A stretch of DNA of 64,000 bases, from contig OZ034977.1 in the NCBI GenBank assembly GCA_964030785.1, positions 33,989,152-34,053,151 of the forward strand. Direction: 5' to 3'. This document shows positions 17,153 to 50,400 of the stretch, one piece after another. The stretch's first letter is position 1, and each line of letters starts with the position of its first letter. The stretch comes from Siderastrea siderea (taxonomy: Eukaryota; Cnidaria; Anthozoa; Scleractinia; Rhizangiidae). A program made the position numbers and the translations under genes. Below the pieces are notes generated by a model that worked only from the letters and a program-made list of their open reading frames with translations, was not told the DNA's origin and ran no database searches.

Positions 17153-28852
<11,700 letters not shown>

Positions 28853-30993
28853 ACAAAGCCTTTGACAAACACCCACATTGTACGATAAAACAATTTAAAA
28901 ATCTGATCAGTGGTGTTTTTACTCGTACGTACAGGTCTTTAATCCTTGTTGAAACATTGCCGCAATTTTATATTTTTGTTTTTATTGCCACTGGTGCATT
29001 CCACTGAGCTGCAGGGAACCAATCAGAAAAGAAAGGCCCAGAATGGCCCTGATTAGTACACACTCACAAATGTGGCTTATAATTTGAAAGAATGCAAATC
29101 TGATTGGTCGATTTGTTTTCTGTGATTCCACGTTGAACTAAAATCCTTGGGTTTTTTTTGCAAATCGGACCTAAATATTGTGTTTTTTGGTTCTAATCAT
29201 TTACTTGTCTTAACTAATTAAAAACAACTAGATTGCTTGGCCATGTTTCCTATGAGTGATAGTCACCTTGCCTGTACTTTACTGGCTAGTCGACCGAGGA
29301 AAAACTACAGCAAAATGCACTTAATAGTTTTCATAATTGTTACTGTACATAATAGAGCATAAAACTGAAACCCACGTCAAGGATACTGTATTTGGCGTAC
29401 ACCTCATAAAATGTAGGCTGGTATTTCTGAACATAATTATTTGTGATGATTTTGTGGTTTAACTTTGAAGGAATCTTAGAATGATGTAATTTTGATTTTA
29501 ATTATAGCTTTAAACGCTACATGTATAATTATTGTAAGCTACTATAAACAACTACTGACCCAGTGTTTACGATTTAAAAAACTGTCCTGCAGTATCAGTC
29601 ACGGAGGCTGGCTGGAAAGCCATTTATCAACTGTGACCACTGATGAGTCATGAAAATGAAGTCAGGTGAATGAGTTGGTGAAATTAATGACAGAGGTTTT
29701 CTGATAAGAATTCACTAACTGTTTGCCAGAGCCTTTTTTGTTCAGGCCAAAAAAATGGTGACATGGTCATACCATGTGTTCCACTCAGTGCATTAAATAA
29801 TCATTAAATGTGACTAACGTACTAGGTAACTGTGAATAGTGATGTAGCAATAAAATTGTTGTTCATTAAAATATGACTGATGAAGTGCTTGCTAGTTTGG
29901 ACTGTTCAGCAAAATAATTACAGTAATATGTAATGATCAGTATATAAACTCATCAACTATAGATGAGGTTGGGGAGCCAAGTTGCTGGAGCCAAGCGTGC
30001 GTAAGGTGTTCATGGCAACCCTGTGAGCAGCAACCACCAATGGCACCATCACACTGAATTACATTCAGTGGATATAACACTGCACTTTTATGAGAGGGAG
30101 GGAAGGAAGGGACAGGGAAAGCAGCAAGACAGCTATGAATTTGTTAATGCTACAATGAACAGAATTGCACCATGAGTGTCAAGATGCAGTTTATTTATAT
30201 ATTGTATATAATTATGGTAAGAATTCTTCCCATGCTGGTTCCCTCATTAGGCTCTGTGATTGTTTGCATGTAGATAGCTTGTTCACAAACTCGGTATGAT
30301 CAGCATGGGTCAATAAATGGTTCTAGGTAGTTCACTCTGGTAGACAAAAACCATCCAGTAGATCAACCCCCCAACCCCCCACCCAAACCTTATTTTCCTG
30401 ATTATAAGCATACTATGTTAGGTTACTTGTTAGTTGCTTATTTACTAGTCAGAGTGGTTTTACTTTTTTAATTACCCATGAAACAATTAGTGTCTAATAT
30501 TCAAACTTGAACAAAAGAAAACAATGAAATTAGGGAGTAACAGTCTAGTATCTATTTCGTGGGTTTAGTAAAATCTCTGTAGTATTTGTGTTGTTGAACA
30601 ATAGTTCTCGAACTCATTTTAATAATTCATAAAGAGAAAACAAAGGAATTCACTACTGTGACAGTGGTTTGGGTACCTGATCTTAACTAGCATAAAATTT
30701 TGAGAACTTTTTCTTTCAATTTCTCCAAGAACTATGAATTAATGGTTTGAGAAGCTATATCAAACACTTGAAAGAGTGTTTCATCAGGTATGTAAACACC
30801 TTAAACTTTAAGCTGTGCCTTGTTTTTAAATCCACTTCTTGGCACTTTCTTTCTCGTGTTCGATAATTATCTCATCTACTTTAAATAATGAAAATGGATT
30901 CATGAATGATTGTTTGATTCTATTTAGTTTCAACTGTTTTGTTCCAGAATAATATCATTGAGGAAAGGTGATTATGATGTGCCTACAAACCTC
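28853..30993. other. Region between two convergent genes
   Basis: This is the 3' side of both the coiled-coil gene (+) and the MULE-Ulp1-PHD gene (-). Candidate poly(A) signals are AATAAA at 29849 on the + strand, and TTTATT near 30188, which reads AATAAA on the - strand. No coding exon was recognised. Confidence 0.5.
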
Positions 30994-33900
30994 TCATTGA
31001 GGGCAGGTGAAGAAGGGCTTGATAGCTGCAATATAGTAGTCCTGTGTAATACAAGCTGCATGAAAGAACTGTCCACAAGCATCACAGGACAGCCACAGAA
31101 TGCCGTCACCACCTCGGCAAACCTTGCAGACTTCGACATTCCGCCTGGTGATAAAATGAATAAGCAGAAAATATAATGATGATCAAAATGAGAGCAATTT
31201 GAAATAAGTTTAAATGAAGAATCCATCAAGAAGAAAGCAACAAATTTCAACTACAAAAAAACATCCCACAAATGAAAAAGCAGGCCTTTTAAAACATTAA
31301 ATTAATATGGTGTGACGAGACCAGAAGGTTAGGACAAGAGCTAAAATCATGGGTATGCTTTAATCTATTTTATCCCAAAAGTTTTGGTTTGAAATTCGAG
31401 AAGCTTTCCATGTCAATGGAAAGGCTTTTTCCATCCTGGCGAAGAGCCCCTTGTTCTGTTCCAAACTTGCAATCTCACTGGTAGATCGAAAACCTTGTGT
31501 GATGGCACAATGGAACAAGCCAACAAACATCAACAAAATGGATGTTGCACTGTGACTATTTTCTGATGTGGACAATTTTGATAAGGAAATTCAAACTTTC
31601 AATACCAGCTATTTGTTGCTATTTTGTGGGAAGGGATTTAAATAGGGGAGAAAACTGTTTTGAGTCTACAGTGTGGAGAGGACTTTGCAGTGCATTTTCG
31701 GATGAGTCGCACTACCACCAAGCGGCTGACTAGAGAAGTGTTGAGAACAGGGAAAATACCAACAGATGTCTATAGACAAGAAACAACCATTTTAAAACCG
31801 CAAAGTCTCAGAACAGTTGCCCTAGTTATCCTCAACAGCAAAATGTCAGGAAAAATTCCTGAAAAAAAAAAGATAAAATGTTTCCTGTCTGTGTGCAGCA
31901 GAAATGGAAATGCAAAATTAATGGTAATAGAATAAATTTAAAAAGTGAAGTACCTCCCAAGGTCATCCACTTGTTCTGGAAAAATTCTAGTAGATCAGCT
32001 GCACATTCCATTCACTTTTCAACCGCTCAAAAATTTTTCACTAAATGGAAAGCAGCCCGAGTCTAGCAAAAACTAGAATTGTAGTGGGTCGAGCTGTACT
32101 GGCCGAGTGAAAACTGGATGATTAAGGGAAGTTGCTTAGAACCAAGTGCATGCTCACCTCAGGTGGACACCGGTTAAAAAAAAAAAAAGTAGATGGTGTT
32201 CTTAGAACTGGGCTCACCCAGCCTCCAATGCAGTTGTTTTTGGGGGAGTCGTATTACCCTCCTGCCCACAAACGCCTGCTTACCGGAGTTTAACATTCCT
32301 TTCCAATTGTTTTACTTGCAAGGCAGTCTAACCAATCACCATTGGGGCATTGTCTGACAAAGACCAGTCAAATTAATCGTTATAATGTGCACCTCTGTAC
32401 TTCAGGTGATTGTTTTTGTTCCGAGATGCTGGTGCCGGGAAGCTGGAACATATTCTTTACTTCTAGAATGGCGAATTATGGCTGAAAAATCGGAAAAAAC
32501 ATATTGCGTGATTAAAAGTGTTTCCTGTGTGACACTTTTATCCCGTTATTGACCGAAGGAGTTCGAATCTTCTGACAAAGCATTGTTGATCTTCCTCGCC
32601 TGATCGAACGGACAGTCAGAGAAGACTTCAGCGCTTCTCAAACTGCTGGAGCCAATGCAATGCGAAGGGATATATAAGAGACTTCTACGAATTGAAAAGA
32701 CAAAGAGTAAGACGACAAAGGACCGAGCGAGATGATAAACCGATGAATGAGATGAAAATATTACATCTGACGTGCCACAACAACCAAGTGCATTTCGGCG
32801 GCGAAATCTGTCATACTCAATTCGCTGGCATATCCTTTAATGTTTCTGCTATCTTTGCGTCTAGGGACGAAGGAGGTTTTTGCAACGTGCATTTGCATGC
32901 TCTTTTTGCACGACATTCCCTATTAAAACAGAGGGGACTGCTAGTCCTAGTTTATAACATGTAGTCTAGTTTACAATCACTATTGTGATTACACAGAGCT
33001 AATAGCTTATCAGTTTTAAAATCTCTTGACGGATTTCTAAGTTTAATGTTGCATTTGAAAGCTTATAGAGTATAGATAATCCTACACTTCTAAGTTAAAT
33101 GAACCATTTGAAAGTTCAGAGAATGTAGTTATAATTATCCCTGCATTTATAATTAATCAGTGATTTAATGCTTTTGGAACAATTTAGTGCCACGTGGGAT
33201 TGCAACACGATATCGTAAATTTTATGCCTAAACGGAGTTTATCGAGCACATAAATAAATTTATTTCTCCAAAATCTTAACACCGATTTTGAAGTTCAACG
33301 TGCCATTTCAAAGGTTAGGAAACTTCGTTATCCCTGCATTCAAGAACGATTTTGAGATGACGTTTTACTTTACATTTTAAAATTTATACTGCGCTGTCCC
33401 GCGCGTCTGTTATCTGCATGTGTTCTCGCGAAAGCGTCCTGCGGTCAAGGTCAACCTTCCATCCATAAGTAGGTACAATGTGATTGGCTAAGCGGCAGAA
33501 AGGAATGTTGAACTCAGGTAGGCAGGCGTTTGTGGTGAGGAGGGTAATACGACTCCCCTAAAAATGACTGCGTGGGAGGCTACACCCCAGGCTACCTGGT
33601 TAGATTTGAGGTTGCATGGAGTTGGAACACTCCATGCAACATTGACAAATCACCCCTCCTGAACATTGACAACTCATCCCTCCCTGCTTCCTAATGTCCC
33701 CCCCTCTCTCCCCTCCCTGTTTCCATCTCTCTTCTTTTTGTGTCTGCACATGTTACCTTTGGATGTCACTATAGCAGAATCCAAGGATAGTGTCACAGAT
33801 GTGCTGTCTGTCCTGATGTAAATTACATGGTGATGCGAAGCACAGCCCTTCAGCAAGACATCTGGCAAACTGTAGACACAAAAAAAGACATGTCAGTTGC

Positions 33901-36900
33901 CCAGGTGAAGGCCAGAGTGGCATCTGGATCTTTCCCAATCAACTGAACCAGCCATGAGGCTGAACACTACTGATGCTTAACAAGTACTGACAGTTTTATT
34001 TGTCGTATGAAGGACTTTAAAAAAAACATTTTTCTTTCTATCCCCTACCCATTAAGGCACATAGTGTACAGGGATTATTTCCAGTTAGACTATGGACAGT
34101 CCCTCTTTCTACTCAGGGAAAGTAGAGCAATTACTAGCCAATTGCGTCTGTTAGGTTTCTCAGGGCTTCATAAATGAAATGGTGCATTTTTATACAACTG
34201 AGTAAAAAAGAGAGCATTAGGAGGAAACTTCATGACCAAGGAGATTGACATCTGGCAAACTGGATTGACAAAACTGTGGACTGCTATGGTTCACCCGTGG
34301 TCATGGAAAAATATAGCCTGCGAATACAGCCGCCTCTCATTCACATCCCGCAACGAAGAGCGAAAGGCGGCTGTATTCGCAGGCTAGGAAAAATAAAAAA
34401 ATCTGACTTCTGCCCATGCAAAGCTACATGTAAATAATTTGTACAGTCATGTGCATGTTGACACGAACAAGTACAAACTATAACATGGTCTCTTCCAGAG
34501 ATGATGTCAACAAATTTGACGTGCATTCATTTTATGATCAACAGGATTTTCAAATATTTACCTTTCCATTTGCACAAGAAAATCATCCATGAGCTGAACA
34601 ATGTAACAAATTATGAGGGAAATTGCAGCTGGGTAAGTTATTTAAGGTAGGGCTTAATCATCGTCACCTTCATCAGGTGTCATGACATCAGTAGTTAAAA
34701 ATGTATGGGTCAAATAGTGAGGTGGACCAGACTTGTTAGCTGCATGGGGGGAGCTGCTTGTTTTAAGGCGGGCTAGCTACTCTGAACTCAAAACCAAGCT
34801 ATGGCAGTGGTCGCTGTGGAGCTTTAAGGAGAAGTCTTATCTTCAGCATTGGGTAGCTTATAAAACACTTGGCAAGCAACCCACTTAATTGGTGCTTAAT
34901 TTCACCAAACCAAGGACTAACCACCAATATCTACATGACTGTACCTATATTGAGGCAACTCTACCTTTCAGTAGAGAGGCCCTGAACATTGACTGTGCAA
35001 TTGGTGTGATACATGTGCAGGTTTAAGTACTTACCCAACAGATAATTACACCACAATTGTGTAAATCCTGCTGACTGTAATGACACGGCTCTCTGCACGG
35101 CCAAGTTAAGCTGTTCCACAACACCTTGGAGTCAATCATCTCACTACAAAATTCTCTCATTAGAAAAACATCTGACTGCACTCTTAAACTTACCACATTC
35201 AGTCAGGTTGTCTGTCCACTCTGTCCTAGTATAACAATATAATTATTTTTGGCAGAAATTTAGTTGCTTTGGTTCAATCATCTCTCACTTAATTACAATG
35301 ACCTGTTACTTGGGAGCTCTGCTGTTTACTGGCTAACCTACATGGACAGTGTCATCACTGTATTGACCACACACTTTGTCCATTAATTTTTTGCTCTTGT
35401 TTTCCCACTTGTTCAATACATGCCATTTCCAAGTTGTCTTGTGCCTTTCACATGAATATGAGTTTTCATATGAAAGGGTAATTGTACCAAAACTCAATTT
35501 GAAAATTAGAGGTACAAGACAAGACAACTTGGAAATGGCCTTTGTGAAAATAATAGAGAAACTAGTTAACACTGATACCCTTACGGCTAAAGTGAAGTTA
35601 CAAAAAGGGTTTAATGCTTGAATTAGTAATGATCATGACCGCAGAATGTAGAATCATACCATATTCTTTGAATGTTATGCATCAGCTCTTGGTCTGTGTC
35701 CATAGTTACTGTATGTTCTTCTGATACAAAGGGGTCAAAGTACAGCTTCTCTTGGTTACATTTGTCAACAGCCTGGTAATTAAAGGAAATAGTTTCACAG
35801 TGAGTGACATTTAGTAAAGAGAGGGAATACAGGGATGGGGGGGGGAGGGGTTGGGGTCACTTTCTTCTGTGGTCTTCTTTAAAATAAACTAGCTGAAGTT
35901 AAAATATTTCTGTTAATGGTATTAAATACTGGTATATAATTGTTTTACTTTTTGCTAACCAAGCTCTGAGAAGTAACTGAAGTCACTAACAAATTAAAAC
36001 AGTTCTAATTTATTACATTCAAATATGTCACTTATTTTTTTATTTCTTTGTATACTTGAATGCAATTTGAAATGGAAATAATTAAGCAACAACAAACTTG
36101 TACTGGTGGATGATTTTCTAAAATCACAAGTACTTACATTGCTAAATTACTTTATAAATAATAAAAGTACTTGTACTTGTGCTTGACTTTTAAGTGCTTT
36201 TATTATGCCACATCAATCTTGATCACATCCAATGAGAATAATGAATTGTGTGACAAAAAGTGTGACAAAAGTTCACAAAAAAACACAAGAGTTTAGGAAG
36301 AGTACAGTGTACACAACAGTTGACAACTGAAAATACACTGGACAGAATCGAACACAGGAGTTGACAAGAAAAACACAAGAATTGACAGGAGAACACAAGA
36401 CTTTTCACAAGAACACAAAAGTTGACAAAAGAACACAAGAGTTGACAAGACAACACAAGAGATGACAAGTCAGAGTGCACAAGTAACACAAACAAGAATA
36501 AGAGTTTAATTAACAAATTCTTGGCAGCTGTCATTAATTCTGATTAAGATGGATTCCGTTCAATGTTCGAGCAATAAGTGCAAAAAATATTTACTAAAAA
36601 ACTACTCATAGCACGGTAACATTTTAAATGCTATTTGAAACATCTCACTCTAGTTCACTTGCCCAAGTGACCCCGCGATGAAATTCTCAAGCATTCTCAA
36701 GAAAATTAACTTCAAATCTCGTTAAAGTATGCTAAAAACGGGCGCCATTTTCAGTGTTCTCCCTAGTTTTCAGGGTAACAGGTAAGTCAGTTTTTTGGAC
36801 CGGTAAAGCAGCTCTGTTGAAAATCTTTTTCTACGCTCGTGTGGAATTGTCGTCATGAGACCCGAAATGTTGCAGGGATGACACTAGGCTAACACACGTT

Positions 36901-39900
36901 TCAAAAACCCTTCAAAACGGTTGACGTTTGTAATTCCTGTGACATGGAACGTATTAACGTACGGATAAATGTCGAGAAGAAAAAGCTTACAGCAACCTAA
37001 AAAATGTCCTGAGAAACGCCTAGAAGATGAGACATACTCCTTACAAAGGCACAAACGAAGAACTTCGAGGAGAAGACAATACTAAGAGTACCTTACAAAC
37101 AAACCTGAACAAACCAACGTACGGATATAGATGTCAAGAAGATAACACTAGTATCTCATGACAATGCTAACGTACGGAGAAATGTTAAGGAGATACAACT
37201 AACAACATCTAAATTACGAATATACTAGCACACGGACAAACGTTGAAAAGATAACAATAATATTTTTTGAATGTTTTAACGTACGTAGAAATGTCGACAG
37301 TCGTGAAGATAAGACCGCACCTTACTCCACTGACGAACACACTATCGCATGGAAACTGTCCAGAAAACTAATACCTTAGGAATGTACTGGCATATGGAGA
37401 AACGTTAAAAAGATACAACCTACATCTTACTTAGGTAGAAACGTGCGGAGAAACGTAGAGAAGATGAGACTATTATCTAACGAACTTAGAAATGTTGAGA
37501 TGATAAGACTACGTCTAATATTGTACAAACGCATGGACAATGAGAAAAGTTACTAAAACTAGACTTACGTGGTACGCAGTAGCCTGCATCGCAGACGTAA
37601 TCTAACAGTCACATTCCGTCTGCGGTGCAGGCTAGGTACGCAGTACGACAGACATAAATCTTTTCATAATACAATCCGATAATAAATCTTTCACGATCCC
37701 AAACTGTTGGATGTTTCTAATCCAGGCCTTTATCTGGTTCCGGCTAACCGGTAACAAGCGGTGCTACAAGCGGTAAATTTTACCGGTTACCGCCTGATAA
37801 GGAGAACACTGCATTTTGTTTTGAACTGACATGAAGCGTCTTTTTAATTGAAATATGGATAACTTCAAATCCAATTTTCTCTCGTGGCGTCAGCTTGGGA
37901 CAGTGCTGCAAGTATTTTTTTGGTAACTTAATTTTTGCACTTACTGCTTGAACGTTGAGCAGAAATCGTCTTAACCTCTCTGCATTACAGTTAGCTAATT
38001 TCCTACAACAAGCAATACTCACCAGTAATGTCCAGTGATGTCCAGACACATTCATAGGAACAACAATCATCTCCACGTCTTTCAATCTGTCTCCTCCTCT
38101 AAGCATGTAATTTGGGCTTCCTCCACCAACAATTTGAAGATAAAATGAGCTGCTTAGGGTGAAGAACTTTCTGTTGGTAAACTGGCATCTCCAAAAGAAT
38201 GCATCTATCACCTTTGAATGGTAGAAATCCCACTTAATCTTTCTAAGGACACACAAGAATACATGTACATGACTGTATAAATTGTACATTCGCCAATAAC
38301 GCACATGCATTGTTCATTTCCATCTTCTACTTGGTCACTGATTTGATAGCCACATAGTACCTTTCAGTCATAACTAGTTAATTTGGAAATACAGTTTCTA
38401 TCTTAGTTTGTGGCATGTAAGGCTCATGCCATTGCCAATGCTCTAGGGAACTCCACAGATTTTGATATTAGAACTTACATTATCACTAAGCCATCCTGGA
38501 GTGAAGTCGTGAATCACAAGTCCTATTGCTCTGCGATCTTTGTCACTCAGTTTGGTAGGAGGCACCAGTGTCCACAAATCTCCAGGGGTTATGTTGTGAG
38601 GTCCCAGTACCAACAATGTGTCACACAGACCTAATTTCCAGTTTGCCAGTCCATGAAGGCATTTACACATACCATATCCGTGAACCTCACTGTTATCAGA
38701 ACTTGGTACCTTAATGGCCGCACCATCTCCCGAGACATCCTAAGGAAAAGAACGGAAGGCAATTAAAACATGATGATAACATTAAGTTAACTTTAAAAAC
38801 TGAGGGGCTACAAGCATAACCAGGTAAATATTAAATAAGTAAATAAATAAATAACTAAATAACTCATTGACTGACTGACTGACCGACTGACCAAACTACT
38901 GAATGATTGCTGACCGACCGACCGACCAACCGACCGACCAACCGACCGACTGACTGGATGGATGGATGGATGGATGGATGGATGAATGAATGCGAACAGA
39001 AGGATGGATGGATGGATGGATGGATGGATGGATGAATGAATGAATGAATGAATGAATGAAGAAGGATGAACAGAAGATGGATGGATGATGAATGAATGAA
39101 TGCATTCATGCACACATGCATGCTTGGATGCATGAACAAATGAACAAACATGAACAAAAGAAATACACAAATGAATAAATTATACAAATGAATGAACAGC
39201 AACAAACATTTAACAAATTAAATTAGGTACCTTTGTGCTGCTGTCATTCCTTGGTCCTAAATGTTGGGTGACATGCTCAGTTACAGTCCGCAAATGTGCT
39301 GTAGCTGCAGGTGCCATTGCTGGACACTGGTTATCTCTGTTGGCACCTGTCTGTAGATTAGATGAACTCTTTGTTGGGCTCTCGCCGGTATGAGTGCTTT
39401 TATTCAATTCAGTAGAGTCGTCGTCACAAGTTCCCAGCCTGAGTTTCTTCACGGGAGGACAAAGATCTGCATTCTGTGATGTGCTTGCCTTTTCACAACA
39501 TGAACACAATTCTTCCATTGTTGTTAAAACAGACTGTAAAATGTCCACATCATTGATGTGATGAAGTGATTTAGCCATGGAGACAATCCTGTCCTGAATT
39601 TGCTCCTTTAGTGAGTATAGAATGTTTGCATGGTTTGATGAAGTACCCTTGTCAGTTGCAGCCTGGCCAGGAGTCGCATAATCATGATCAATTAATGCAC
39701 TTGCAATTTGCTGGTAGATAGCAAAATTATCTAAAACTGATGAATCAACTTCTGTGTCAATAGAGATGAATGGACTATTCCTGTAATGAGCTGGGAGACA
39801 TGCAAAAGACCAATGTTGAACAAACATAAATATAGCATGAAAATGCTCACAAGGGAAGTGAGTTAGCTGCCACAGTTCACAGGAACAACAAGGTACTTCA

Positions 39901-42900
39901 AACTGCACATGATGGAAGTCATTATAGGTGCTGGAGCTTCGCACTTTGAACTCGCCTTGGTGAAAATCAACACAAACAACATGCGCTGGGTCCTTGTATT
40001 CTCGTTCTGCTCTAAACTGAGCCTTCAAGCAGTGTTTAACAAAACTGGGTGGTCTGTGGTGAAGATGTGGGGGAACCAGAGGGTTTGCTTCCTGGACGTG
40101 TTGACAGAGATTTGTGTTCATCTCCACATAGCTTCTATAGCTATCAGGAATGAATGACTCAACCAGCATCACTGCAATCCCATAAACAGACCTGTCAAGT
40201 GTCCAAGGGAGATACCAGTATGAGAACACACGAGTCTGTTCCTTGATCCCATCGTTCATGTTAATAATGGTATCGGCAGTTGGATGCCTCACTGCTTGAG
40301 CCCAACGCAATGCACAGGACAACCAGCCACCAACAAACTTTTGCACATTTGCCTTGTCTTTATACAGCGCTGATTCCTGGAATTCGACCACAGTTGATGA
40401 AAGCAGCTCTTCTGTCTTAGAGTTCCTTGCAGAATTGAGGAAAGCAAGGAGATCGTATTGTTCTCTGATTTCAAGATTGTTTTTAGAAGTTTGTATCCAC
40501 CTCTGCCACTCTTTCAAAAGATGGAAATCAGAAATGTACACAGTTGCCTCTGGGAACTGCTCTTCAATAGCACTGATTTCCATTTTGGAGAACCCAGTCA
40601 CCCAAAAGGAAGGGTTCCAAGCTGGATTCCATGACTTAACAACCCTGATAGCTTCACTGATTAACTCCTGACAGTCATTCTGGATGACAAATTCAGCAAC
40701 TACTTTCAATCCCATGTTTGTCTTCACATAAATAAAATACAGTGGCAATGAGTATTTTGTTGTGTTATGAACGCCATCCATGAACACAAGCTCTCCCCCA
40801 TATCGAGATAACAAACGCATCTGCAAGGGCTCTTGATGAACAAACAAGAGAGGACACATATGTTTTCTGCTTTGAGCTGTGGTTAAATCAATATCCCTTT
40901 CAGAGTTCCCAGCCACAGTGCTGGCTCTGTAATAAAACATAGTCTGCGGAGATCTGCATTTCCAATCATCTACCTTCCTTTGTAAGGACTCCTGATCATT
41001 CTTACAGTACTTCTGTGCTTGTTTGGCTCGGAATATATGGTTTTCTACATCTTTCTTTTTTGGATAAAACCTCTGATTGTCACGGTGTGGCTTTTGTTCA
41101 GATGGTGCATCACGGAACAAGTCAAGTTCCACATACTCTGCTAGCATCCCCTGGACGTGAGTCACATCGTCAATGTTTCTTTCAACCAGATCATGTATCT
41201 TGGTAACAATGCACTTATCAAGCAAGTGTTTTGCACCAGCTTGACTGCCTACAAGATGTCCCTTATGCACATGTAATAGAGGAATCTTCACATAGTGTCT
41301 GGACAGCATTTCCTCTGGTTTCCTTGCACTGTTCCTCTTAAATTTCTTCAACATATTCTTTTTCTGACAGCGGACACCAAATTTTGTCGGAGTGGATGAG
41401 ATATCAATGCCGTACTCTGGAAAAGTGGTTATTGTCCGCACCTGAATGTTTGCTGGGCAGTCCACCTTGATTGTGCCACGAGGTTTCCTTGAGTTACTGG
41501 CCTCTTGTGAGATATCTTTTTTACCACCTCGGGAATCCTTGAAAGCAAACAAAAGGTAGTTTTACAAGTTAGTCAATTGAAAGTTAAGAAGAAAATTTTG
41601 ATTTTATGATGTACAGTGTGATAAGCTAACTCCTTTACATTACATAGGTAAGACAGTACATGACAAATTATTATTTTTAAATAACAGAGACTGACAAATA
41701 AGTTTTATGGCAATTACAATCATTATGATTGTGTTACCCTGACAGATCCATGTATGCAGTGCCAAACTTCAGAACTTGCTATCTTGAATGGCACTCCAAA
41801 AAAACTGATGGGAATGTTTCCTGATCTGTGTTCCCAAACAGGTGTAGCTGGATTGAAATAAATTAAAATAAACAAAAAATTAGGCAAAATATTCTGAGAT
41901 AGGGCACTCTTTCGGTTTTTTGTTAAATGAAAGTCAGCATCTGATGTCAGGTTGGAATGAAAATATGCTTTACTTGTACAATACAAAGGCAACATTTGGC
42001 CTTGAATTGTTTATTTTTGAACTTATAATTAAATTTAATATTATTAGTTCTTGTTGCAGATTGGCTCAGTCTCCATTAGTGGAATTTAGAAGAAATATTT
42101 TGTGCATTCAAGTGGTTATGTTTTCTTCCTTATTCTTAAGCTCCCTCTCAAGTTGTTTTAACAGATTGCAGAATGTGGATTTTTAAGCTTATGCCTGAAT
42201 TTAGTCAGGTGAAAATATTGTAAGCCAAAAATCCCACACAAGCAATGCAATTGACAAATTATACCCAAAACTTTAACCAGTTTCATCAGGGAGGTATTTT
42301 AATTTATAAAGAATACTAAACTACATATTATTCTTTGCAACACAGCAAACAAATGTCACAAAGGTTTGTTGATGTTTCAACCAGTTTCACCGCTCATCAT
42401 CAGAACATTAAGGCTGAGTGGAGCCCAAGCCTTTCACGACCAAGGAATGTCTTGTTGTATATATGAGTGCCCCTCATTATGGGAACATGATGGATGGATA
42501 ACTCCCAAATGTAGATATGGCCCAACTTATACACCTCTTTGTCTTTGTCAGGACTGTGATTGTCCCCAGGGCAATGTCTTCTGATCCGACACTCTCTCCC
42601 ACAACCAGTGTTTAAAGCAGTTCCACTATTATTCAGAATTTCTGCACGAGCCTGTGCAGTAGATGAACCCTTGTACGGTCAACGTAACACCAAAAAGATA
42701 ATTATGTTCAATTTAGTGATCCTTATGGTTAGCATGTTAGACTTTCAATCAGAAGACCACACCTAGTTGGTAGCTGAAGGCTTTAGTCTCTGCGTAATGA
42801 CATGCTGTAGTTGCATTATACTAGAGGAACCAGAGTTAAGTAACAGCCACGTGGGCCATTTGCAGGCACATGTGTAACTTTACATTATGCCATCATACAG

Positions 42901-45900
42901 TTTAATACGGTGTCTGAAAATAAGTCCTCAGTTGCTCAACACCAAGCCACTGGTTGTGCAAAAGCGAATTGACACTAATAGGTAAGAAAGATTCAAGAAT
43001 TATGCTATTAATCCACAGTTAACTTAATCCTGCTTTCAATAACCTACAATAGCCTAGGTGGAAACCAGGGAAAATCGAAACTTGTGGACACCCATGGTTT
43101 CACTTACAATGTGAAGAGATGGTGGGGCAACAACAACGACTGGCAGTGCACCGTCCGACCGAAGGTACTGTATGTTGCAGTTTTTATAAAAGTACTTAAT
43201 GACTTAGGGCCTGACAAACAAAATTTAACTTTCTGTTTTCTGATATCATACTCCAAAACACAATGAAACAAAATTTGACTTTCTGTTTTCTGATACGTCA
43301 TACTTCAAAACGCAATGAAACAAAATTTGACTTTCTGTTTTCTGATATGTCGTACATAGGCCAACCCATGTAGAGCAACCGTTACACAACGAGAAAACGG
43401 CAAATTCGTGTTGGGGAGACAACAGCATAACCACACAGGTCAAGTGGGGGCAGCTTTAGCGCTAACATCACAGCGAAAACCAAAAAAGAGGCGGTGAACA
43501 ACCTACTTAAACCTGCGACTGCGATAGTGAATGAGGTCCTTCTAGAGGAGTTAACAGATGCACCCTGCCCCAGTCTTCCCAAACCAGAACACCTGGCGCA
43601 TGCAGCAGACTACATTGAGGCAACGCCTTCGGCCCTCAGACCCCAAAGACCTGGATTTCCAGTTAGATCCCGTCCACATTCCAGATAACTTCCTTCGAAA
43701 AGACATCATGGTGAGTATACAAATGTGAATATTCACAAATATTAGACATAACCCCAACCCCTCTCGTGTTCAGTATCAGGCTGCGCATACACGGAAAAAG
43801 TTTTCTAAAGTTTTCTACAGTGACTTTGAATTTTACCAGTTTGTCACATTCGACGAGTAAAATTGATCGCAATTTCCAGATGACAAAGATGTGTCTGACT
43901 AGGATCCTTAAATTACAACATATTTGTAGTTCTTTAAGTAATGTTTCTTATTTTTGCGTTTAGGTCCGTCATCACCGTAACCCAGATTCCCGTCACCTTT
44001 TCTTTGTGACAGACCACCAACTTGATGTGCTCAGCAGAGCAAAAAGCTGGTACATCGACGGCACGTTTAAGTTGGTACGTCAGCCGTTTAGCCAACTTGT
44101 CACCACCAACGCCTTCGTGAAAACTGACGTCTACACTAAGCAAGTCCCTCTGGTCTTTGCCCTAATGTTGGGGAAAAAGACAAAAGACTACAAAGCCGTC
44201 ATTAAAGTAGTGCTGGAGATGCTTCCTGTCCCGCCAGCGGTGAAGAAGATCACGCTCGACTATGAGATAGCTGTAGGGAAGACACTTCGAGAGCTGATGC
44301 CCAATGTCGACATTGTTGGGTGTGTGTTCCACTGGATGCAAGCACTGTGGAGAAAGGTATGTTAGCGATGTTTCACATACAATATTTCAAATCAAATTTA
44401 ACTAAAGTTTACGATGATAATTTCAAATCTGGGATTAATTCAAACCTGTAACCGCTTCTTCTTATACCATATTTTCAAGTCAAATTTAACTGAAGTTTAC
44501 TATGATAATTTCAAATCTGGGATTAATTCAAACCTGTAACTAAATTCAATCCTGTAACCACTTCTTCTTATGCCATATTTTCAAATCAAATTTAACTGAC
44601 GGTTACAATCAATTCAAAACCTGTTACTAAATCCAAACCTTTAACTGGACATTGTTTAAACACTTGAAGCGGGGTTGTTGAAATACGTTTTCCTTATTAA
44701 ACTGGGTTACTTATTTTTGGTCTTTACTTATTTATAGATACAAGAAATTGGCCTGCAGGCAGCTTACACCAACGACCAAGGTACCTACTCATTGCTGCGG
44801 AAGTACATGGCCCTCCCGTTCCTGCCAGAGGATGAGATCATACCAATGTTTCAACAGCTACAGCGACATGCCACGACTGAACCCTTAGAACGATTTTCTT
44901 ACTACCGTATTTACACGTGTATAGGCCGCACCTGCATATAGGCTGCACCCCAAACTTGTGACCTAATCTTGGGGGAAAAAATAATTTCTTAAGTATGCAA
45001 GAAGAAGAATCGAGTTTCGAGTCGAGAAACTAAAATAAATGAGCTTGTCGCTTGAGTGATCTACCGAGAAATGAATCGGACAAACGGACTGAACTTGATC
45101 GCGAGCGTTATTGTTTACAGATCCAACAAGTGTGTTGAAAAATGAGGTGCAAGCGTCGCCGTTTTGTGCGATCAAATAATGACAAATGATACATGTGCAT
45201 TTAGAATTCGCTGCTCCTTTCCTCATAGGGTAAATTATCCACTTTGAGCTTTTAACGTTATGGAAATTGTTGCGATAATTCTAAAAACGGCTATTTGACA
45301 AAACACTCTTACTAATGTAAAGTCGCTCGAAAAAACTCAAGCTTTTCCCTGTTGTTGCGTAAAACAGGCTTTTCACGGGCTCAGCGTAGTGTCAAGTTTT
45401 GTACAAGTGATGCTAAATTTCTGATTGTTTAAGAATTTACACATTTACAGGTGAAACAGGAGGGCAAAATGTCTGTCGAGAGTGAGAGTTGTGTCAAAAG
45501 CATTGTGTTATGCATTGTGTATTTACAAGTTTCAAATTTCGCTTTTGACGTATGCAAATTAACATGCGTAGGGTAAAAATAAATCACCTCTTATTTATCG
45601 CTGAAGACACGACAATGTGTATTAAACTTCGAAACTGTGATATTTTATATCAGTTTCATTTATGAATTTTTCTTTTTGTGACGGGTTCAGTGTATTTTTC
45701 GTGTAGTTCGGCAAATAAACAAACGCGGTTTGACGTGAACGGCATCGAAAGGACTTCTTGGCTTGACATGCAAACTTCTTTGGACTTCATCCAATAACAA
45801 ACATATTCGGAAACTAGATACATTCATTGCAGCGGAGAGAAGCAAAATTCTTCAAAGACATGGATTAACTTGACCTCATACGATACATTCAATCAAACTG

Positions 45901-47353
45901 TTAAGCTTTCAGTAACTTTGTTGACTCTGTGAGTGTCGGGAAATTTTGCATATTAATGAGCTCAAAACTCTTGTACCCACGTATAAGCCGCACCCCAAAT
46001 TTTGAACATTTTTTTCCTTGAAAAAAGTGCAGAGTATACGCGGGTAAATACAGTACATCTCCAGTACGTGGATAAATGGCTCCACATGGTCTCCGTCCAG
46101 TTGGTGTGTGTTCGGCCAATCTGTGCGGACAAACAACGACGTCGAAGGTTGGCACAATGGCCTAAACAGACGTGCGCAAGGCAGGTCCAACCTGCCATTC
46201 TACATGATGATCCAACTGCGTCATGAGGAAGCGAAGCTTGCCTCCCTACAAATCAGGCTCGTATAAGAAAGGAAGTTGTGGCGGCACCAAAAGAAGGCTT
46301 ACAGAGAGCTGCAGTCGAAGATTTTCCATCTTTGGGAATCTTACAGAAATGATGAGAGGACAGCAAACCAGCTGCTGAGGGCATGTGCCCATCTCTACGG
46401 CCCAGTAGAAGACTGAAGACTGAACCAAAATCCTGTAGGTCGAGCATAGCGCTCGATATTGCACTCTTCAGGTGCTACACCAAAACGGCTCCTTTAGGAA
46501 CCACCACATCTAATAAAAGCTATGACCAACAATACTATTTATCTAACACCCGATATACCCATTCCTTTGTATACTATTGCTAAACTATTCACAGTCTTTA
46601 TCCGTCGTGATCAATCGTCGATTTCGAGGGGTCGCCATCTTGTTTTCTCAAAGTGAGCGAAACCTGGGGAGAGTACAAAGTGCACTCTCCCCAGGTTTCG
46701 CTCGCATTTAGATCCACGGACGCGATGATCGATCACGAACACGACAATATTTTTATAAACTACTGGGTTGACAACAAAACTAAATGCTTGCTTGATAGTG
46801 GGGCGAACTTGATCTACTTTGGAGGCGAACTTGGTTAACTGTGGGGCGAACTTGGTTAAACCACCGTAATTCGCCTAGGCCAAACTTACTCAAACAAGGA
46901 TTAGTGTTAATTTCAACTTGGTTTACCGTAAATTCGCTGTCCCATTTTGACTCTGGCTTCTTTCATTACTAAACCTTTTCATAAATATAAATTCTTAAAA
47001 ATAACATTTAAGGTTATAATCTGTTCACCTCCTGTGCAAACGTTCTTTGAGTGAGACACTGCGTGACAATGCCAAAGAACGCCTGCTAGCCCTGATATGC
47101 TAATAAACTACTCACCCGCATCAGAGTATCTCTTGTGGCCTTTAGCCCTGGAATGTGTCTCAACACGAGTGAAACTAGTTGAGCCAATCGCCATAAATCG
47201 AAGAAGAAAGTTCTCCAGATCTCCCTCAAAATGGCCAGTGACGTATCCATCCTCCTCTTTAAAGTCCCTTAGATGACTCTTCAAGAATTCCCGCTCTTTA
47301 AGAATTTCAACTCCTTCTTCTACTGAGGTACTAACCGAGGTCATGGCAGCCAT
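30994..47353 (-). CDS. MULE transposase-SWIM-Ulp1 protease-PHD fusion protein
   Basis: Ten exons in order of transcription: 47353-47116, 41847-41738, 41537-39231, 38739-38479, 38211-38023, 35772-35660, 35444-35338, 35090-35035, 33869-33757 and 31144-30994. They total exactly 3645 bp with every phase matching and encode about 1214 residues. Residues 80-150 hold a Cys/His motif (WHCIHG, later VDCPA) like FAR1-type zinc fingers. Residues about 360-465 are a MULE domain ([22 protein letters not shown]). Residues 667-681 are a SWIM finger (CSC, then CEH). Residues about 895-1165 are a C48 Ulp1/SENP fold: [14 protein letters not shown], catalytic HW at 1031-1032, Asp 1048 in YFDPF, Gln in SQQD and Cys 1121 in HNCGV. 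Residues 1171-1212 are a PHD-like C4HC2 finger ending CPQ-stop. The second MULE Asp is Gly (WVTGFSKME), suggesting loss of transposition activity. The gene has no flanking terminal repeats and sits head-to-head with SLC37A3. The weakest exon boundary is the acceptor at 35444. Role in chromatin or SUMO biology is inferred. Confidence 0.8.
31660..31770 (+). pseudogene. Possible PIF/Harbinger-type transposase fragment
   Basis: A short open stretch contains [16 protein letters not shown] followed by TGKIP. This resembles the F-R-M-S-R motif near the start of Harbinger-family transposases. The surrounding frames are broken and no terminal repeats were found. It lies in the last intron of the MULE-Ulp1-PHD gene. 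Confidence 0.35.
32220..33581. mobile_element. 1.36-kb foldback DNA transposon with TIRs of about 100 bp
   Basis: The left end (agcctcc, then gggggagtcgtattaccctcc, then cacaaacgcctgc, then aacattcctttc) reappears inverted at 33481-33581 with perhaps 85 percent match. The interior shows no transposase; the longest internal frame, at 32692-32964, matches nothing I know. The termini resemble Mutator-like TIRs. No clean target duplication is visible, so the exact ends may be off by a few bases. It lies in the last intron of the fusion gene. Confidence 0.8.
33611..33640. repeat. Perfect 12-bp inverted repeat hairpin
   Basis: gttgcatggagt and its inverse actccatgcaac are separated by 6 bases, just outside the right end of the foldback element. 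Confidence 0.8.
34305..34395. mobile_element. 73-bp palindromic MITE with perfect 9-bp target duplication
   Basis: Perfect 22-bp arms (tagcctgcgaatac... at 34314-34335 and its inverse at 34365-34386) enclose a 29-base loop. The element is flanked by ggaaaaata at 34305-34313 and again at 34387-34395. A 9-bp duplication fits Mutator-like transposition. It lies in an intron of the MULE-derived gene. Confidence 0.9.
35422..35539. repeat. Inverted repeat overlapping a 3' splice site
   Basis: The 21-bp arm at 35422-35442 (gccatttccaag...) is perfectly inverted at 35519-35539. The left arm lies inside the exon 35338-35444 of the - strand gene; the right arm is in the preceding intron. The acceptor site therefore sits just inside the stem. 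Confidence 0.8.
36270..36490. repeat. Degenerate minisatellite of about 20 bp (acacaagagttgacaag)
   Basis: Roughly ten degenerate copies in an intron of the - strand fusion gene. On the - strand this produces a spurious Cys/Phe/Leu-rich open frame. Confidence 0.75.
36950..37520. repeat. Degenerate tandem repeat with aacgtacggagaaatgt core
   Basis: The core aacgtacgga(g/t)aaatgt followed by gagaagata-like sequence recurs about every 60-75 bp, at least seven times, with heavy divergence. It lies in the intron between 35773 and 38022. Confidence 0.6.
37571..37643. mobile_element. 55-bp palindromic MITE with perfect 9-bp target duplication
   Basis: Arms of 18 bp with one mismatch (tagcctgcatcgcagacg at 37580-37597; inverse at 37617-37634) are flanked by ggtacgcag at 37571-37579 and 37635-37643. 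It shares the terminal tagcctgc with the element at 34314, so both belong to one Mutator-like family. Confidence 0.9.
38825..39130. repeat. Complex tetranucleotide microsatellite (GACC, GACT, GGAT, GAAT)
   Basis: Successive runs of gact, gacc, ggat and gaat units lie in the intron between 38740 and 39230. Their - strand translations give false Ser/Ile/His/Pro-repeat proteins, which are not genes. Confidence 0.95.
41848..43060. other. Part of intron 1 of the fusion gene, no feature seen
   Basis: This sequence between the second coding exon of the fusion gene and the antisense FLYWCH-MULE remnant has no exon with recognisable content on either strand. Confidence 0.5.
43217..43372. repeat. Tandem repeat of about 51 bp, three copies, in the pseudogene intron
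   Basis: The block aaatttgactttctgttttc recurs at 43221, 43271 and 43323. It lies between the two FLYWCH exons of the broken transposase and runs into the acceptor at 43359. Confidence 0.85.
44385..44640. repeat. Tandem repeat of 88-105 bp in the pseudogene intron
   Basis: The block tttcaaatcaaatttaac recurs at 44385, 44473 and 44578. The second unit is longer by 17 bp from an internal partial duplication. Confidence 0.8.
44903..46055. mobile_element. 1149-bp TA-flanked DNA element inside the FLYWCH-MULE pseudogene
   Basis: The element spans 44905-46053 with TA at 44903-44904 and again at 46054-46055. Its ends are inverted: ccgtatttacacgtgtata on the left and, inverted, ctgtatttacccgcgtata on the right. 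Both ends also contain a gtataagccgcacc-like motif. Removing the element and one TA restores the host frame, so the boundaries are secure. No transposase was found inside. TA duplication suggests the Tc1/mariner/pogo group; this is inference. Confidence 0.85.
46655..46703. repeat. Perfect 20-bp inverted repeat, cctggggagagt core
   Basis: The arm at 46655-46674 is perfectly inverted at 46684-46703, with a 9-base loop. Its right arm begins a segment that recurs in inverse orientation at about 48930-49125. Confidence 0.9.
46684..46860. repeat. Dispersed ggggcgaac repeat, copy 1
   Basis: This segment contains atccacgga, gatcgatcacgaacacgac, gttgacaacaaaactaaa and ggggcgaactt. It matches the reverse complement of about 48930-49125 at high identity. 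A third, partial copy of the ggggcgaac part lies at about 49955-50065. Confidence 0.8.
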
Positions 47354-47472
47354 GTTAACTCACGGGCGCTTGAAGGGAGCTGCGGCGGCTTTGCATTCTG
47401 GACGTGATATAAGCGACATCGGACAGTCCCGAAATAATGATGTGACAGAGGGAGGAACAGCAAGTCGAAAAC
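47354..47472. promoter_or_regulatory. Probable bidirectional promoter
   Basis: Only 119 bp separate the start codon of the - strand MULE-Ulp1-PHD gene (47353) from that of the + strand SLC37A3-like gene (47473). The interval is GC-richer than its surroundings, with CpG sites such as gcggcggc and no TATA box. The 5' UTRs must overlap this interval, or each other, or be very short. Upstream non-coding exons cannot be excluded. Confidence 0.6.
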
Positions 47473-50400
47473 ATGGCGTCTCACAGGCGATGGACGTTAC
47501 ACCATTTGGTTGTGTTTGTTCTCACATTTTTAAGGTATGTAAACCCAGTATACGCACGAAACAATCTAAAATTACTTAGATAACTTTTAAAACTTACCAC
47601 AGCCAGAAAATATTCAAGAGCCTCTCTAGTGAGAATGTCTTTGTGCCGATATTTTGGTGATGAATTTTAATTCTGTTTTCTGACACTCCCTTTTTATGGC
47701 TTTTCATTGCTTTGACTAGGTTTCGTTTTAGCCTGAAGGAGTTTAACCTGAATGGTGATTGTGTGTCAAATGAAAGATGACACAGATATGGGGACGAATT
47801 GGACAGCAAATACAGTGCCGGGCAAAAGTAAGTTGACAGCCTCGACTCGAAACTCGATTCTCGATCCTCGATGTTTTCGCGAATCGAGAATCGAGTTTCG
47901 AGTATCACGGATCGAGTTCCGAGCTTCGAGACACTCGAAGAATTTTTTGAGACTCTCGAATAGGGATTTCAAGGAAACGATTTATTTCTCGAATACAGAA
48001 CAATAATAACGAACAATAACAATTTACGTGACGCAAAATTAAAAATCCGAAATCTGACCTGCTTCGATTTCATCAACCGGAAATGTATAACCACCATTTC
48101 TGATTTGCACGTATTATATGTAAATACTGGAATCATTTGAATCAAAATGTTAAATATATCTGGTACAGTCTTGTCATTTCAAGAAAATTTCACGCTGAAG
48201 CAGAAGCAAAATAACAATCGCATCTGACGCCTTGAATTTGCATAATATATCTAAAACAACTTGATGGGCAGAGGTGACATTCCTGGTTCGTCTTTCTTTC
48301 GTCGCTGATATCTCCGTCTCTAAACTGCTGAGAAAGGAGATTAAACCAGCAAAACACTCTGCTTTTGAAGTCACAATCTGTGATAAAGATTCCCACAATG
48401 CGCTGAGTATTTCTCAATAATATTATTGCAAGCGAATTTGTCAGTTTTACAGCAAACACGCGCTGACTTTCTAGCAGTATTTGCATAGCTTTCACGACAA
48501 GTTTGTAAAAAGTCGTATTCCCGGTTCTACAAGGTGTATAAAGATGATTACACCAGTAAAACACTCTGCTTTTGAAGGCATAATTTGTGATAAAGATCCC
48601 CACGATACACCAAGTATTTCTCCATTATGTTATTCATTTATTGCAAGCGAATATTTGTCAGTTTTTCAGTAAACACATGCCGACCATCTAGCGGCATTTA
48701 CATAGCTTTCTCGGAAATTGTGAGATGGCTTCAACAAACAAATTATTCCCCAGCGGCACCTAAACGAAACAAATGAAGCCTCATGGCAGTAAAGAATATT
48801 AGCGGCTTTGATGACACTTTTTGTTTCGGAGAAAAACCGACTGTCGTGTTTGCATGCCTTTTTAAAAACATGTCCGTGTTACTGTAGCGAATTACAGTGG
48901 TTTCGTCCCGTTGCGAGTTAGCCCCATTAAAGTTCACCCCACACATAACGGAGTTCGCCCCACAGTTATCCAAGTTCGCTTCCAAAGTAGATCGAGTTCG
49001 CCCCACGATCAAGCAAGCGTTTAGTTTTGTTGTCAACCCAACAGTTTAAAAAATATTGTCGTGTTCGTGATCGATCTTCGTGTCCGTGGATCTAAATGCG
49101 AGCAAAACCTGGGGAGAGTGCACTTTGAATACTGATAAAAATTAAAAGACTCGCGTGTTCAATGCCGAATCCTCTGGCGCGGGATGTAAAAGTTTCTTCA
49201 AGAGAATGGCAGAGAAAGATCTGCTTCATAAAATTTATAGGTATGCAACAGAAGTGAAGACTGGTCCAACAACAGAGATGAAAGAGTTAACTTTTTATTG
49301 ACATTCTAATTATGTTACATTAACACAATACAATACTTGCCTAATGAGTTTTTTTCTCACTGCAGTTCCTTCGTAATAACAAAATTACAAGACTCGCATG
49401 CCGGCTAAATAAATACTTGGTTTCACTAAACTTTTTTGAATGTTGAATTAAAGACTTGACTGGAATGATTAGAAAAAAAGATATACGCCCGTTATTCAAA
49501 TGGGAGTTGACTCCACACTCCAACAATTTGGTTCGACTAGAAAGCACTCTATTTGTTTTGATTTCTAGAACAAAACAATCAAATTCAAGGTAAGTTGACT
49601 ATGCACTCACACAATAGACGGCTTACACAATAGACTTCACAAGTGAGACTTTTTCTCAACTCAAAATAGGCTTCACAAGTGAGTCTTTTTCTCAACTAAA
49701 TCCCTGAATGCTAATATAATTAAAAGACTCGCGTGTGAATTTGGTTCTTTACAGAAAACACTTTGTTTTGATTTCTCTAACTCCCGTGAGTAGCAGCACC
49801 TCGCTATGAGTTTGTCAGCAGTAAACATCACTGAACATTTTACAATGCGATGTTCGGCCATTTGCAACAACACAGAGATTCTACGGTTCATATGGCAGTT
49901 AAGTCTAACTCTAGAAAGGATCAAAGGTCGTTAGTATAACTTTCTTATATAGGGGTCCAACTCGATTTATGTGGGGCGAACTCAATATATTTGGGAGGCG
50001 AACTAGATTCGTTATGGGGCTAACTCGAGGGGGCTAAATCGCAACGGGGCGAAACCACTGGTTTCCGTTACTGTAGCACGTGTGTATGCAAATGGTATTC
50101 ATGCGAACTGTTGTCGTCGGTATACAATAATGTAGCTTCTCTTGCAACATTTTTGAGTTCTGTAACGGAACTGGCTACGAGACAATCTGCTGGAGACTTG
50201 AATATTCCTCGACTTAGTGTAGTCCAATTGACAATGTGCGAGAGAATGACGGCAGCCATCACCGTTCGATGAAGGACGCAATGGTGATGAAATGGTTTCC
50301 CTTCAGTCTTTCCTCCGATAAGTCACGTGAAAAATTAATGAAGCGCTAAGCTCTTTGTCTCTAGTCTCAAAACTCGAAGTTCTTGATTCGAAACTCGAAA

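What the first reader, a model, noticed from the sequence alone, without database searches (positions are those of the whole stretch)
30994..47353. Intact ten-exon gene fusing a MULE transposase, SWIM finger, Ulp1-type protease and PHD finger
Ten - strand exons join with every phase matching and give about 1214 residues: an N-terminal Cys/His motif, a MULE domain, SWIM CxC...CxH, a complete C48 protease signature and a C-terminal PHD-like finger. Plant Kaonashi MULEs are known to carry Ulp1-like domains. A host-like animal gene with this order plus a PHD finger is, to my knowledge, not a standard described family. The long introns holding other transposons, the lack of flanking TIRs and the divergent promoter argue for domestication.
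Basis: partly seen in the sequence, partly recalled or inferred. Interest (0 to 1): 0.92.

Follow-up and report, generated by a model that had tools for sequence, protein, structure and literature searches.

The report
Domesticated transposase with a SUMO-type protease
An animal genome has kept a single, stationary descendant of a jumping-gene enzyme: its DNA-cutting centre looks dead while its DNA-binding domain and its SUMO-type protease look intact, and relatives with the same domain order still lie in the same genome as transposons with terminal repeats.

Summary
The gene model largely holds. Ten minus-strand exons join in phase into 1189 residues: CaRF-type DNA-binding domain, MULE RNase-H domain, SWIM finger, C48/Ulp1 protease, C-terminal PHD-like finger. 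The locus is single copy in the searches made. Three open relatives are 97, 77 and 69% identical; simulated neutral decay leaves no stop-free frame at 77 or 70%. Two of three transposase catalytic residues are lost in all four orthologues and kept in every related element locus where they can be read. The Ulp1 residues are intact. Domestication is well supported.

The domain order is not a new fusion: the same genome carries multi-copy MULE elements, two with terminal repeats and perfect 9-bp target-site duplications, encoding CaRF-MULE-SWIM-Ulp1-PHD.

Caveats: the PHD lacks its eighth ligand; exon 1 is unsupported and lies between inverted repeats; expression is untested; exons 4-10 could belong to a neighbouring gene. 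Most likely function: a DNA-targeted deSUMOylase or transcription regulator.

The parts
47116..47353 (-). exon 1, ATG at 47353; no recognised domain; least certain exon
   Evidence: donor gtgagt, phase fits exon 2. No Pfam match. Lies between inverted arms, so it may not belong to the gene
41738..41847 (-). exon 2, start of the CaRF (ALS2CR8) DNA-binding domain
   Evidence: ALS2CR8 E 1.7e-4 on the ORF that holds it (22 bits, below cut-off), profile 10-38; on the spliced protein
39231..41537 (-). exon 3: rest of CaRF domain, MULE/ZSWIM-type RNase H domain, SWIM finger, variable tail
   Evidence: one 783-aa open frame (39210-41561); ALS2CR8 3.8e-25, ZSWIM1-3 5.4e-10, MULE 9e-7; relatives 97/77/69% identical
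38479..38739 (-). exon 4, region before and into the Ulp1 domain (ends PGWLSDN)
   Evidence: related exon P0023, 70% identical, with Q just before and V just after the shared part, on a contig of the same length (714045) as the 77% exon 3 relative
38023..38211 (-). exon 5, Ulp1 domain with catalytic His1031
   Evidence: C48 match; close relative P0022 98% identical (one codon fewer; its flanking intron is alike too)
35660..35772 (-). exon 6, Ulp1 domain with catalytic Asp1048
35194..35225 (-). exon 7, 32-bp exon of the Ulp1 domain
   Evidence: supported only by splice signals and phase
35035..35090 (-). exon 8, Ulp1 domain with Gln1090 and catalytic Cys1096
   Evidence: aligned with the Q and C of Ulp1/SENP5
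33757..33869 (-). exon 9, end of Ulp1 domain and linker
30994..31144 (-). exon 10, PHD-like finger, seven of eight ligands, then TGA
   Evidence: PHD E 1.4e-6 on the exon ORF; nearest solved PHDs AIRE, SP140, CHD4, all weak (E 0.006-0.05)
43964..44362 (+). another MULE transposase fragment inside intron 1, opposite strand (not part of the gene)
   Evidence: Pfam MULE E 3.9e-11

Best explanation
This is a single-copy host gene domesticated from a MULE transposase lineage whose elements themselves carry CaRF-type DNA-binding, MULE, SWIM, Ulp1 and PHD domains. The transposase should no longer cut DNA, since two catalytic acids are replaced, and no TIRs were found round the gene, so it should not move. 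What is kept is a protein that should bind DNA through its CaRF and SWIM zinc domains, use the dead RNase H domain as a scaffold or DNA-contact surface, and carry an Ulp1/SENP-type protease with its catalytic residues to sites on chromatin. There it would remove SUMO or a related modifier from chromatin proteins and so change transcription. The degenerate PHD finger may still help contact histones, or may be losing its role. Shown here: gene anatomy except exon 1, single copy in the searches made, conservation of exon 3, loss of transposase residues, retention of protease residues. Inferred: splicing of all exons into one transcript, DNA binding, protease activity, SUMO as substrate, effect on transcription. 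Of the confidence below, the domesticated single gene is the firmer part; the deSUMOylase mechanism alone I would put near 0.4.
For: Phase-matched exons and domains. Exon 3 matches itself at 100%; the best other match is 40% (57 of 138 candidates scored). The last 304 residues match this locus (6 of 7 matches) and one 38% fragment with two stops. Open relatives at 97, 77 and 69%; simulated neutral drift to 77% and 70% gives 9.8 and 12.8 stops on average and 0 of 200 stop-free runs each. Domain blocks are more conserved than the tail of exon 3: RNase H 110/131 and 108/131, tail 90/157 and 84/155 for P0002 and P0003. Second D is G/G/K/G in the 4 orthologues and D in 14 of 14 readable element loci; E is K in 4 of 4 and E in 12 of 12; the CxxH Cys is Ser in 4 of 4 and C in 15 of 15. 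In Muta1 each DDE residue is needed for transposition (passages of PMC5225508). Ulp1 H1031, D1048, Q1090, C1096 align with invariant H, D, Q, C in all 15 rows of the alignment. The four orthologues form one clade (100/100) with a long stem (1.57) and tips of 0.01-0.14. The element end motif is absent without mismatch and, with one mismatch, occurs at four places none of which is at a gene end; no 14-bp inverted repeat joins 27901-30994 to 47354-50500.
Against: No transcript data. Exon 1 rests on splice signals alone and lies between inverted 183-bp arms. The relatives in the protein database are predicted ORFs and had to be at least 0.55 times the query length, so broken relatives would not have been seen; the stop test is conditional on that, and at 97% identity it says nothing (49 of 200 runs stop-free). 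No DNA of relatives was at hand for dN/dS. The PHD finger lacks its last ligand in this genome. The C-terminal Ulp1/PHD part is only weakly alike to that of the elements (hhalign probability 59%, E 9.5e-5; a profile of element C-termini gives the model 1.4 bits), so its origin from the same element is not proven. The 16 element loci are not independent: they fall into about nine groups of close copies. No test of protease or DNA-binding activity.
Confidence: 0.62

Rival explanations
1. Two neighbouring genes were joined on paper: a domesticated CaRF-MULE-SWIM gene (up to exon 3) and a separate Ulp1-PHD gene (exons 4-10) downstream on the same strand.
For: A matching phase at one junction arises by chance about one time in three. 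The Ulp1/PHD part finds Ulp1/SENP5 and, weakly, AIRE/SP140/CHD4 fingers, and scores almost nothing against the elements' C-terminus, whose PHD is nearest PHF2/PHF8/BPTF.
Against: The exon 3 frame runs K-V and then stops after 5 and 15 further codons in P0001 and P0003, and Q-V-Y and stop in P0002 (read by eye; the V implies GT, the DNA was not seen). The exon 4 relative P0023 becomes similar right after a Q. So exon 3 seems to need a following exon and exon 4 a preceding one. The exon 3 and exon 4 relatives lie on contigs of identical length, 714045. L010 has SWIM, Ulp1 and PHD in one frame.
Confidence: 0.16
2. It is simply a transposon copy, recent or decayed, and no host gene.
For: Its relatives are transposons in the same genome, two of them with paired ends and TSDs. 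Inverted 183-bp arms stand round exon 1, though not round the gene and without an evident TSD.
Against: One copy in the searches made, no repeat pair round the whole gene, dead catalytic residues shared by four orthologues, long open frames at 69-77% identity.
Confidence: 0.07
3. A formerly domesticated gene that is now being lost in this lineage, with the PHD finger already truncated.
For: TGA stands where the eighth PHD ligand is expected; intron 1 holds another transposon fragment.
Against: The other modelled exons are open in phase; the Ulp1 residues are intact; close relatives (97-98%) keep exon 3 and exon 5 open, seen on different contigs.
Confidence: 0.1

Closest known systems
CaRF-MULE-SWIM-Ulp1-PHD transposons of the same genome (L009, L010, L011, L023 and others, this work) and Hydra LOC105849580 (P0016)
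   Same: Same order of domains; CaRF-MULE block of L009, L010 and L011 37-39% identical
   Different: Multi-copy; ends GGAGCGCAC and 9-bp TSDs in two copies; second D, E and CxxH Cys kept where readable; Ulp1 and PHD very different in sequence; PHD nearest PHF2/PHF8/BPTF rather than AIRE/CHD4. In the Hydra protein MULE, SWIM and PHD score below Pfam's cut-offs and Ulp1 is seen only by alignment
Plant FAR1/FHY3 and MUG domesticated MULEs
   Same: Host genes made from MULE transposases; FAR1/FHY3 have an N-terminal zinc-chelating domain, a core transposase domain and SWIM (PMC2528002 passages; PMC13306707 start of abstract in the listing)
   Different: CaRF-type domain in place of the WRKY-GCM1-type one; extra Ulp1 protease and PHD parts; animal
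CaRF (ALS2CR8), calcium-response factor
   Same: N-terminal domain matches the same Pfam family, E 5.9e-37
   Different: I did not examine the CaRF protein itself. PMC2877716 (abstract and passages) says it has no similarity to other transcription factors; the word stem 'transpos' does not occur in its main text
Kaonashi MULEs of Arabidopsis
   Same: MULE together with an Ulp1-like domain
   Different: Described as non-TIR elements with the ULP domain in reverse orientation (PMC2528002 passage); no PHD or CaRF domain in that passage
ZSWIM1/ZSWIM3
   Same: Pfam's ZSWIM1-3 RNaseH-like domain matches (9.4e-10)
   Different: To my recall they lack Ulp1 and PHD parts; not tested here

Membership tests
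Active MULE transposon | terminal inverted repeats and 9-bp target-site duplication | tested here: not met
   none round the gene. One search lists 33 inverted pairs (25 shown); the longest stand round exon 1 only, with no evident TSD. Found for L010 and L011
Active MULE transposon | DDE triad and CxxH | tested here: not met
   D370 and H455 kept; G431 and K548 replace D and E; S452 replaces C
Active MULE transposon | several similar copies | tested here: not met
   one copy, next best 40% identical
Domesticated MULE-derived host gene | homologous to MULE transposase | tested here: met
Domesticated MULE-derived host gene | orthologues open under selection in other genomes | tested here: inconclusive
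   supported for exon 3 at protein level; exons 4 and 5 found, selection not tested; exons 1, 2, 6-10 not seen elsewhere; no DNA for dN/dS; broken relatives would have been missed
Domesticated MULE-derived host gene | transcribed and functional | not testable with these tools
   no RNA data at hand
C48/Ulp1 protease | catalytic His, Asp, Gln, Cys in order | tested here: met
C48/Ulp1 protease | cleaves SUMO or a related modifier | not testable with these tools
   needs an assay
PHD finger | eight zinc ligands C4HC3 | tested here: not met
   C1146 C1149 C1160 C1163 H1168 C1171 C1187, then PQ-stop; seven of eight
CaRF DNA-binding domain family | match to Pfam PF15299 above its cut-off | tested here: met
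   128.3 bits against a cut-off of 28.9
CaRF orthologue | orthology to vertebrate CaRF over its whole length | not tested
   the genome search for PF15299 did not complete
Kaonashi MULE | ULP domain in opposite orientation to the transposase (as described in PMC2528002) | tested here: not met
   Ulp1 lies on the same strand and in the same spliced frame as the MULE part

The most novel reading that the evidence does not exclude
A DNA-targeted deSUMOylase was made in one step by domesticating a transposon that already carried a DNA-binding domain, a SUMO-type protease and a histone reader; and the orphan transcription-factor domain of CaRF is itself the DNA-binding domain of an animal MULE lineage, so CaRF arose from such a transposon.
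Probability: 0.33. Interest if true: 0.78.

Novelty: new variant of a known kind. Interest (0 to 1): 0.57.

Why it matters
To my knowledge domesticated MULEs are best known from plants. An animal case that lost the transposase centre but kept a protease would show a host taking over a transposon for its modifier-removing and targeting parts rather than for DNA cutting. The transposon relatives suggest that some MULEs carry their own protease and histone reader, possibly to choose or prepare insertion sites: by profile their PHD is nearest PHF2, PHF8, BPTF and ING proteins, which I recall as H3K4me3 readers. The match of the CaRF domain gives a testable origin for a transcription factor that one study of it (PMC2877716) describes as without relatives.

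Tried and rejected
Selenocysteine at the PHD TGA: no SECIS among the two matches (both below gathering score) in 27000-31200; dropped. AlphaFold model of the exon 3 ORF from six sequences: mean pLDDT 41.6, pTM 0.29, too poor, so no fold search was made. PDB search with exon 3: no hit at E 1. A profile of element C-termini gave the model 1.4 bits; a profile comparison gave E 9.5e-5, which may reflect generic Ulp1 and PHD likeness, so common origin of the C-terminal half is left open. For the profile, and for the Ulp1 residue counts, 13 of the 17 hits were used plus L010; P0009, P0011, P0012 and P0014 were left out. Zisupton/KDZ elements, which I recall as carrying SWIM and Ulp1 parts, were considered: the paper search found no paper; MULE-type profiles and 9-bp TSDs fit MULE. 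Transposon ends could be paired with a TSD for 2 of 16 loci only; L017 has a full-length pair of ends without TSD; L009 gave no pair, and L023 gave only a doubtful pair without TSD. Inverted arms round exon 1 (46676-46858, 48946-49127) show no TSD in the 12 bases outside, and no copy in the fetched loci L009-L024. Ten paper searches listed no description of this architecture; they went by words, and four showed only the top of long lists (15 of 152, 15 of 6,390, 12 of 1,999, 10 of 193). Repbase could not be searched.

Full report
Observation. Splicing the ten minus-strand exons by their GT-AG borders gives one open frame of 1189 residues from 47353 to 30994, every phase matching. The central exon lies in a single 783-codon frame. 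On the spliced protein Pfam finds ALS2CR8 (the CaRF DNA-binding domain) at 74-290 with E 5.9e-37, the ZSWIM1-3 RNase-H-like domain, MULE, Peptidase_C48 and, below its cut-off, PHD. The C48 score rises from 16.7 bits for the exon 5 ORF to 35.1 bits once exons 5-8 are joined, which speaks for the joins. The PHD finger ends ...TCPQ and then TGA, so its last Cys is missing. Exon 1 has only splice signals and phase behind it, and lies between two inverted 183-bp arms 93% alike; it may belong to another insert, in which case the true start is unknown. The recognised domains begin at the exon 1-exon 2 border and do not depend on it.

Copy number and kin. The exon 3 protein matches itself at 100%; the other 56 of 57 scored matches (138 candidates) are pieces of 27-56% identity, the best by E-value 40% over 231 residues. 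The last 304 residues give seven matches, six at this locus and one 38% fragment with two stops. In the protein database four proteins match: three relatives with the exon 3 frame at 97, 77 and 69% identity, and a fish protein (Polymixia lowei) at 26%. Candidates had to be at least 0.55 times the query's length, so broken relatives would not appear. In the 98% relative the intron beside exon 5 is alike too, so that pair says little on selection.

Selection. Simulated neutral drift of exon 3 to 77% and 70% protein identity leaves 9.8 and 12.8 stops on average and no stop-free run in 200 each; at 97% identity 49 of 200 runs are stop-free, so that case says nothing. Conservation follows domains: 110/131 and 108/131 in the RNase H block, 90/157 and 84/155 in the tail for P0002 and P0003. 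In the tree of 22 rows the window and its three orthologues form a fully supported clade on a stem of 1.57 changes per site with tips of 0.01 to 0.14: a long stem and short tips, as after a change of role. Branch order among the element families is weakly supported (7 of 19 inner branches open), and the tool warns of long branches.

Catalytic residues. Aligned with element loci, the first D is kept (D370); the second D is G, G, K, G in the window, P0001, P0002, P0003; the E is K in all four; the Cys of CxxH is Ser in all four, while its His stays. In the element loci that can be read the second D is kept in 14 of 14, the E in 12 of 12, the Cys in 15 of 15, and the first D in 14 of 16. These 16 loci were chosen from among the matches and fall into about nine groups of close copies. 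For the mosquito MULE Muta1, passages of PMC5225508 report that changing any of the three DDE residues abolishes transposition. The fish protein has also lost the second D and the CxxH but keeps the first D and the E; the Hydra protein keeps the second D, the E and the CxxH and lacks the first D's stretch. The Ulp1 residues H1031, D1048, Q1090 and C1096 line up with invariant residues in all 15 rows and with yeast Ulp1 and SENP5 (E 0.0014 and 0.0066).

The transposon lineage. Loci L009, L010 and L023 are 97-99% identical over thousands of bases. L010 spans 9004 bp with terminal inverted repeats beginning GGAGCGCAC and a perfect 9-bp duplication TTCTTATCC; L011, of another group, spans 9113 bp with the same end motif and the duplication GCATGAACA. 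L017 has the ends without a duplication; for the remaining 13 loci no convincing pair of ends was found. L010 encodes a 717-codon frame with SWIM, C48 and PHD above Pfam's cut-offs, and upstream a frame with CaRF and MULE matches; L009 carries a frame shift there and L023 a stop codon. Of the 16 fetched loci, 10 match its Ulp1 part and 9 reach the PHD. A genome search gave 69 matches, 62 of 220 candidates scored, a lower bound; several Ulp1-PHD matches share one score and are probably near-identical copies. The Hydra protein LOC105849580 matches CaRF above the cut-off and MULE, SWIM and PHD below theirs, and aligns at the Ulp1 residues. The domain order is therefore that of a transposon family, and probably older than this gene.

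One gene or two. The C-terminal half resembles the element's only weakly, and its PHD finds AIRE, SP140 and CHD4 at E 0.006-0.05 while the element's is nearest PHF2, PHF8 and BPTF. Either the half diverged quickly or it was replaced. That exons 3 and 4 belong together rests on their order and phase, on the K-V or Q-V step followed soon by a stop at the end of exon 3 in the relatives (protein letters only), on the Q before exon 4 in P0023, and on the equal contig length. It is not proven without cDNA.

Mechanism. The protein most likely binds DNA by its CaRF and SWIM parts, should not cut or join DNA, and brings an Ulp1-type protease to chromatin. DNA binding is inferred from the tested role of the CaRF domain (PMC2877716, abstract and passages). 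Protease activity is inferred from intact residues. SUMO is the likeliest substrate because the nearest solved sequences are Ulp1 and SENP5, at weak E-values. Each of these steps is open to test.

Comparison and novelty. Domesticated MULEs are a known kind (FAR1/FHY3 and MUG genes of plants; PMC2528002 passages; PMC13306707, start of abstract in a listing). Retaining a protease with its catalytic residues beside a dead transposase is a variant that my ten word searches did not turn up. In PMC6446971 the passages I saw give PHD for Rehavkus, and the word ulp1 does not occur; a 2026 survey of arthropod MULEs (PMC13359780, passages) has no word beginning ulp or phd in its main text. Passages of PMC2877716 call CaRF unrelated to other factors; the Pfam match of its domain to transposon frames suggests an origin, which I could not test further because the genome search for that family did not complete.

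The inverted arms round exon 1 and the ascertainment limit of the protein search were added; for these I lowered the main confidence from 0.65 to 0.62 and the novel case from 0.35 to 0.33, raised the two-gene rival from 0.15 to 0.16, lowered interest from 0.58 to 0.57, and changed one membership row to inconclusive.

Noticed in passing
window 43964-44362 (+): A second MULE transposase fragment (Pfam MULE 3.9e-11) lies inside intron 1 on the opposite strand.
   Followed up: partly
window 46676-46858 and 48946-49127: Inverted 183-bp arms, 93% alike, stand round exon 1; no target-site duplication seen in the 12 bases outside.
   Followed up: partly
window 32220-32303 and 33498-33581: Inverted 84-bp arms, 88% complementary, 1194 bases apart, inside intron 9: perhaps a small non-autonomous transposon.
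   Followed up: no
window 53410-57360 (+): Long frames upstream of the gene, one with a reverse-transcriptase domain at 55315-56073 (RVT_1 1.7e-13); probably a retroelement.
   Followed up: no
L010 871-9874; L011 725-9837: MULE elements with inverted-repeat ends and 9-bp duplications; L010 encodes CaRF, MULE, SWIM, Ulp1 and PHD parts; the PHD profile of such proteins is nearest PHF2/PHF8/BPTF.
   Followed up: partly
P0004 (Polymixia lowei protein): A fish protein with CaRF and RNase-H-like domains that has also lost the second catalytic Asp and the CxxH motif: possibly a separate domestication.
   Followed up: no
window 24765-24837 and 25021-25093 (-): Two odd tRNA-like calls with an undetermined anticodon.
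   Followed up: no
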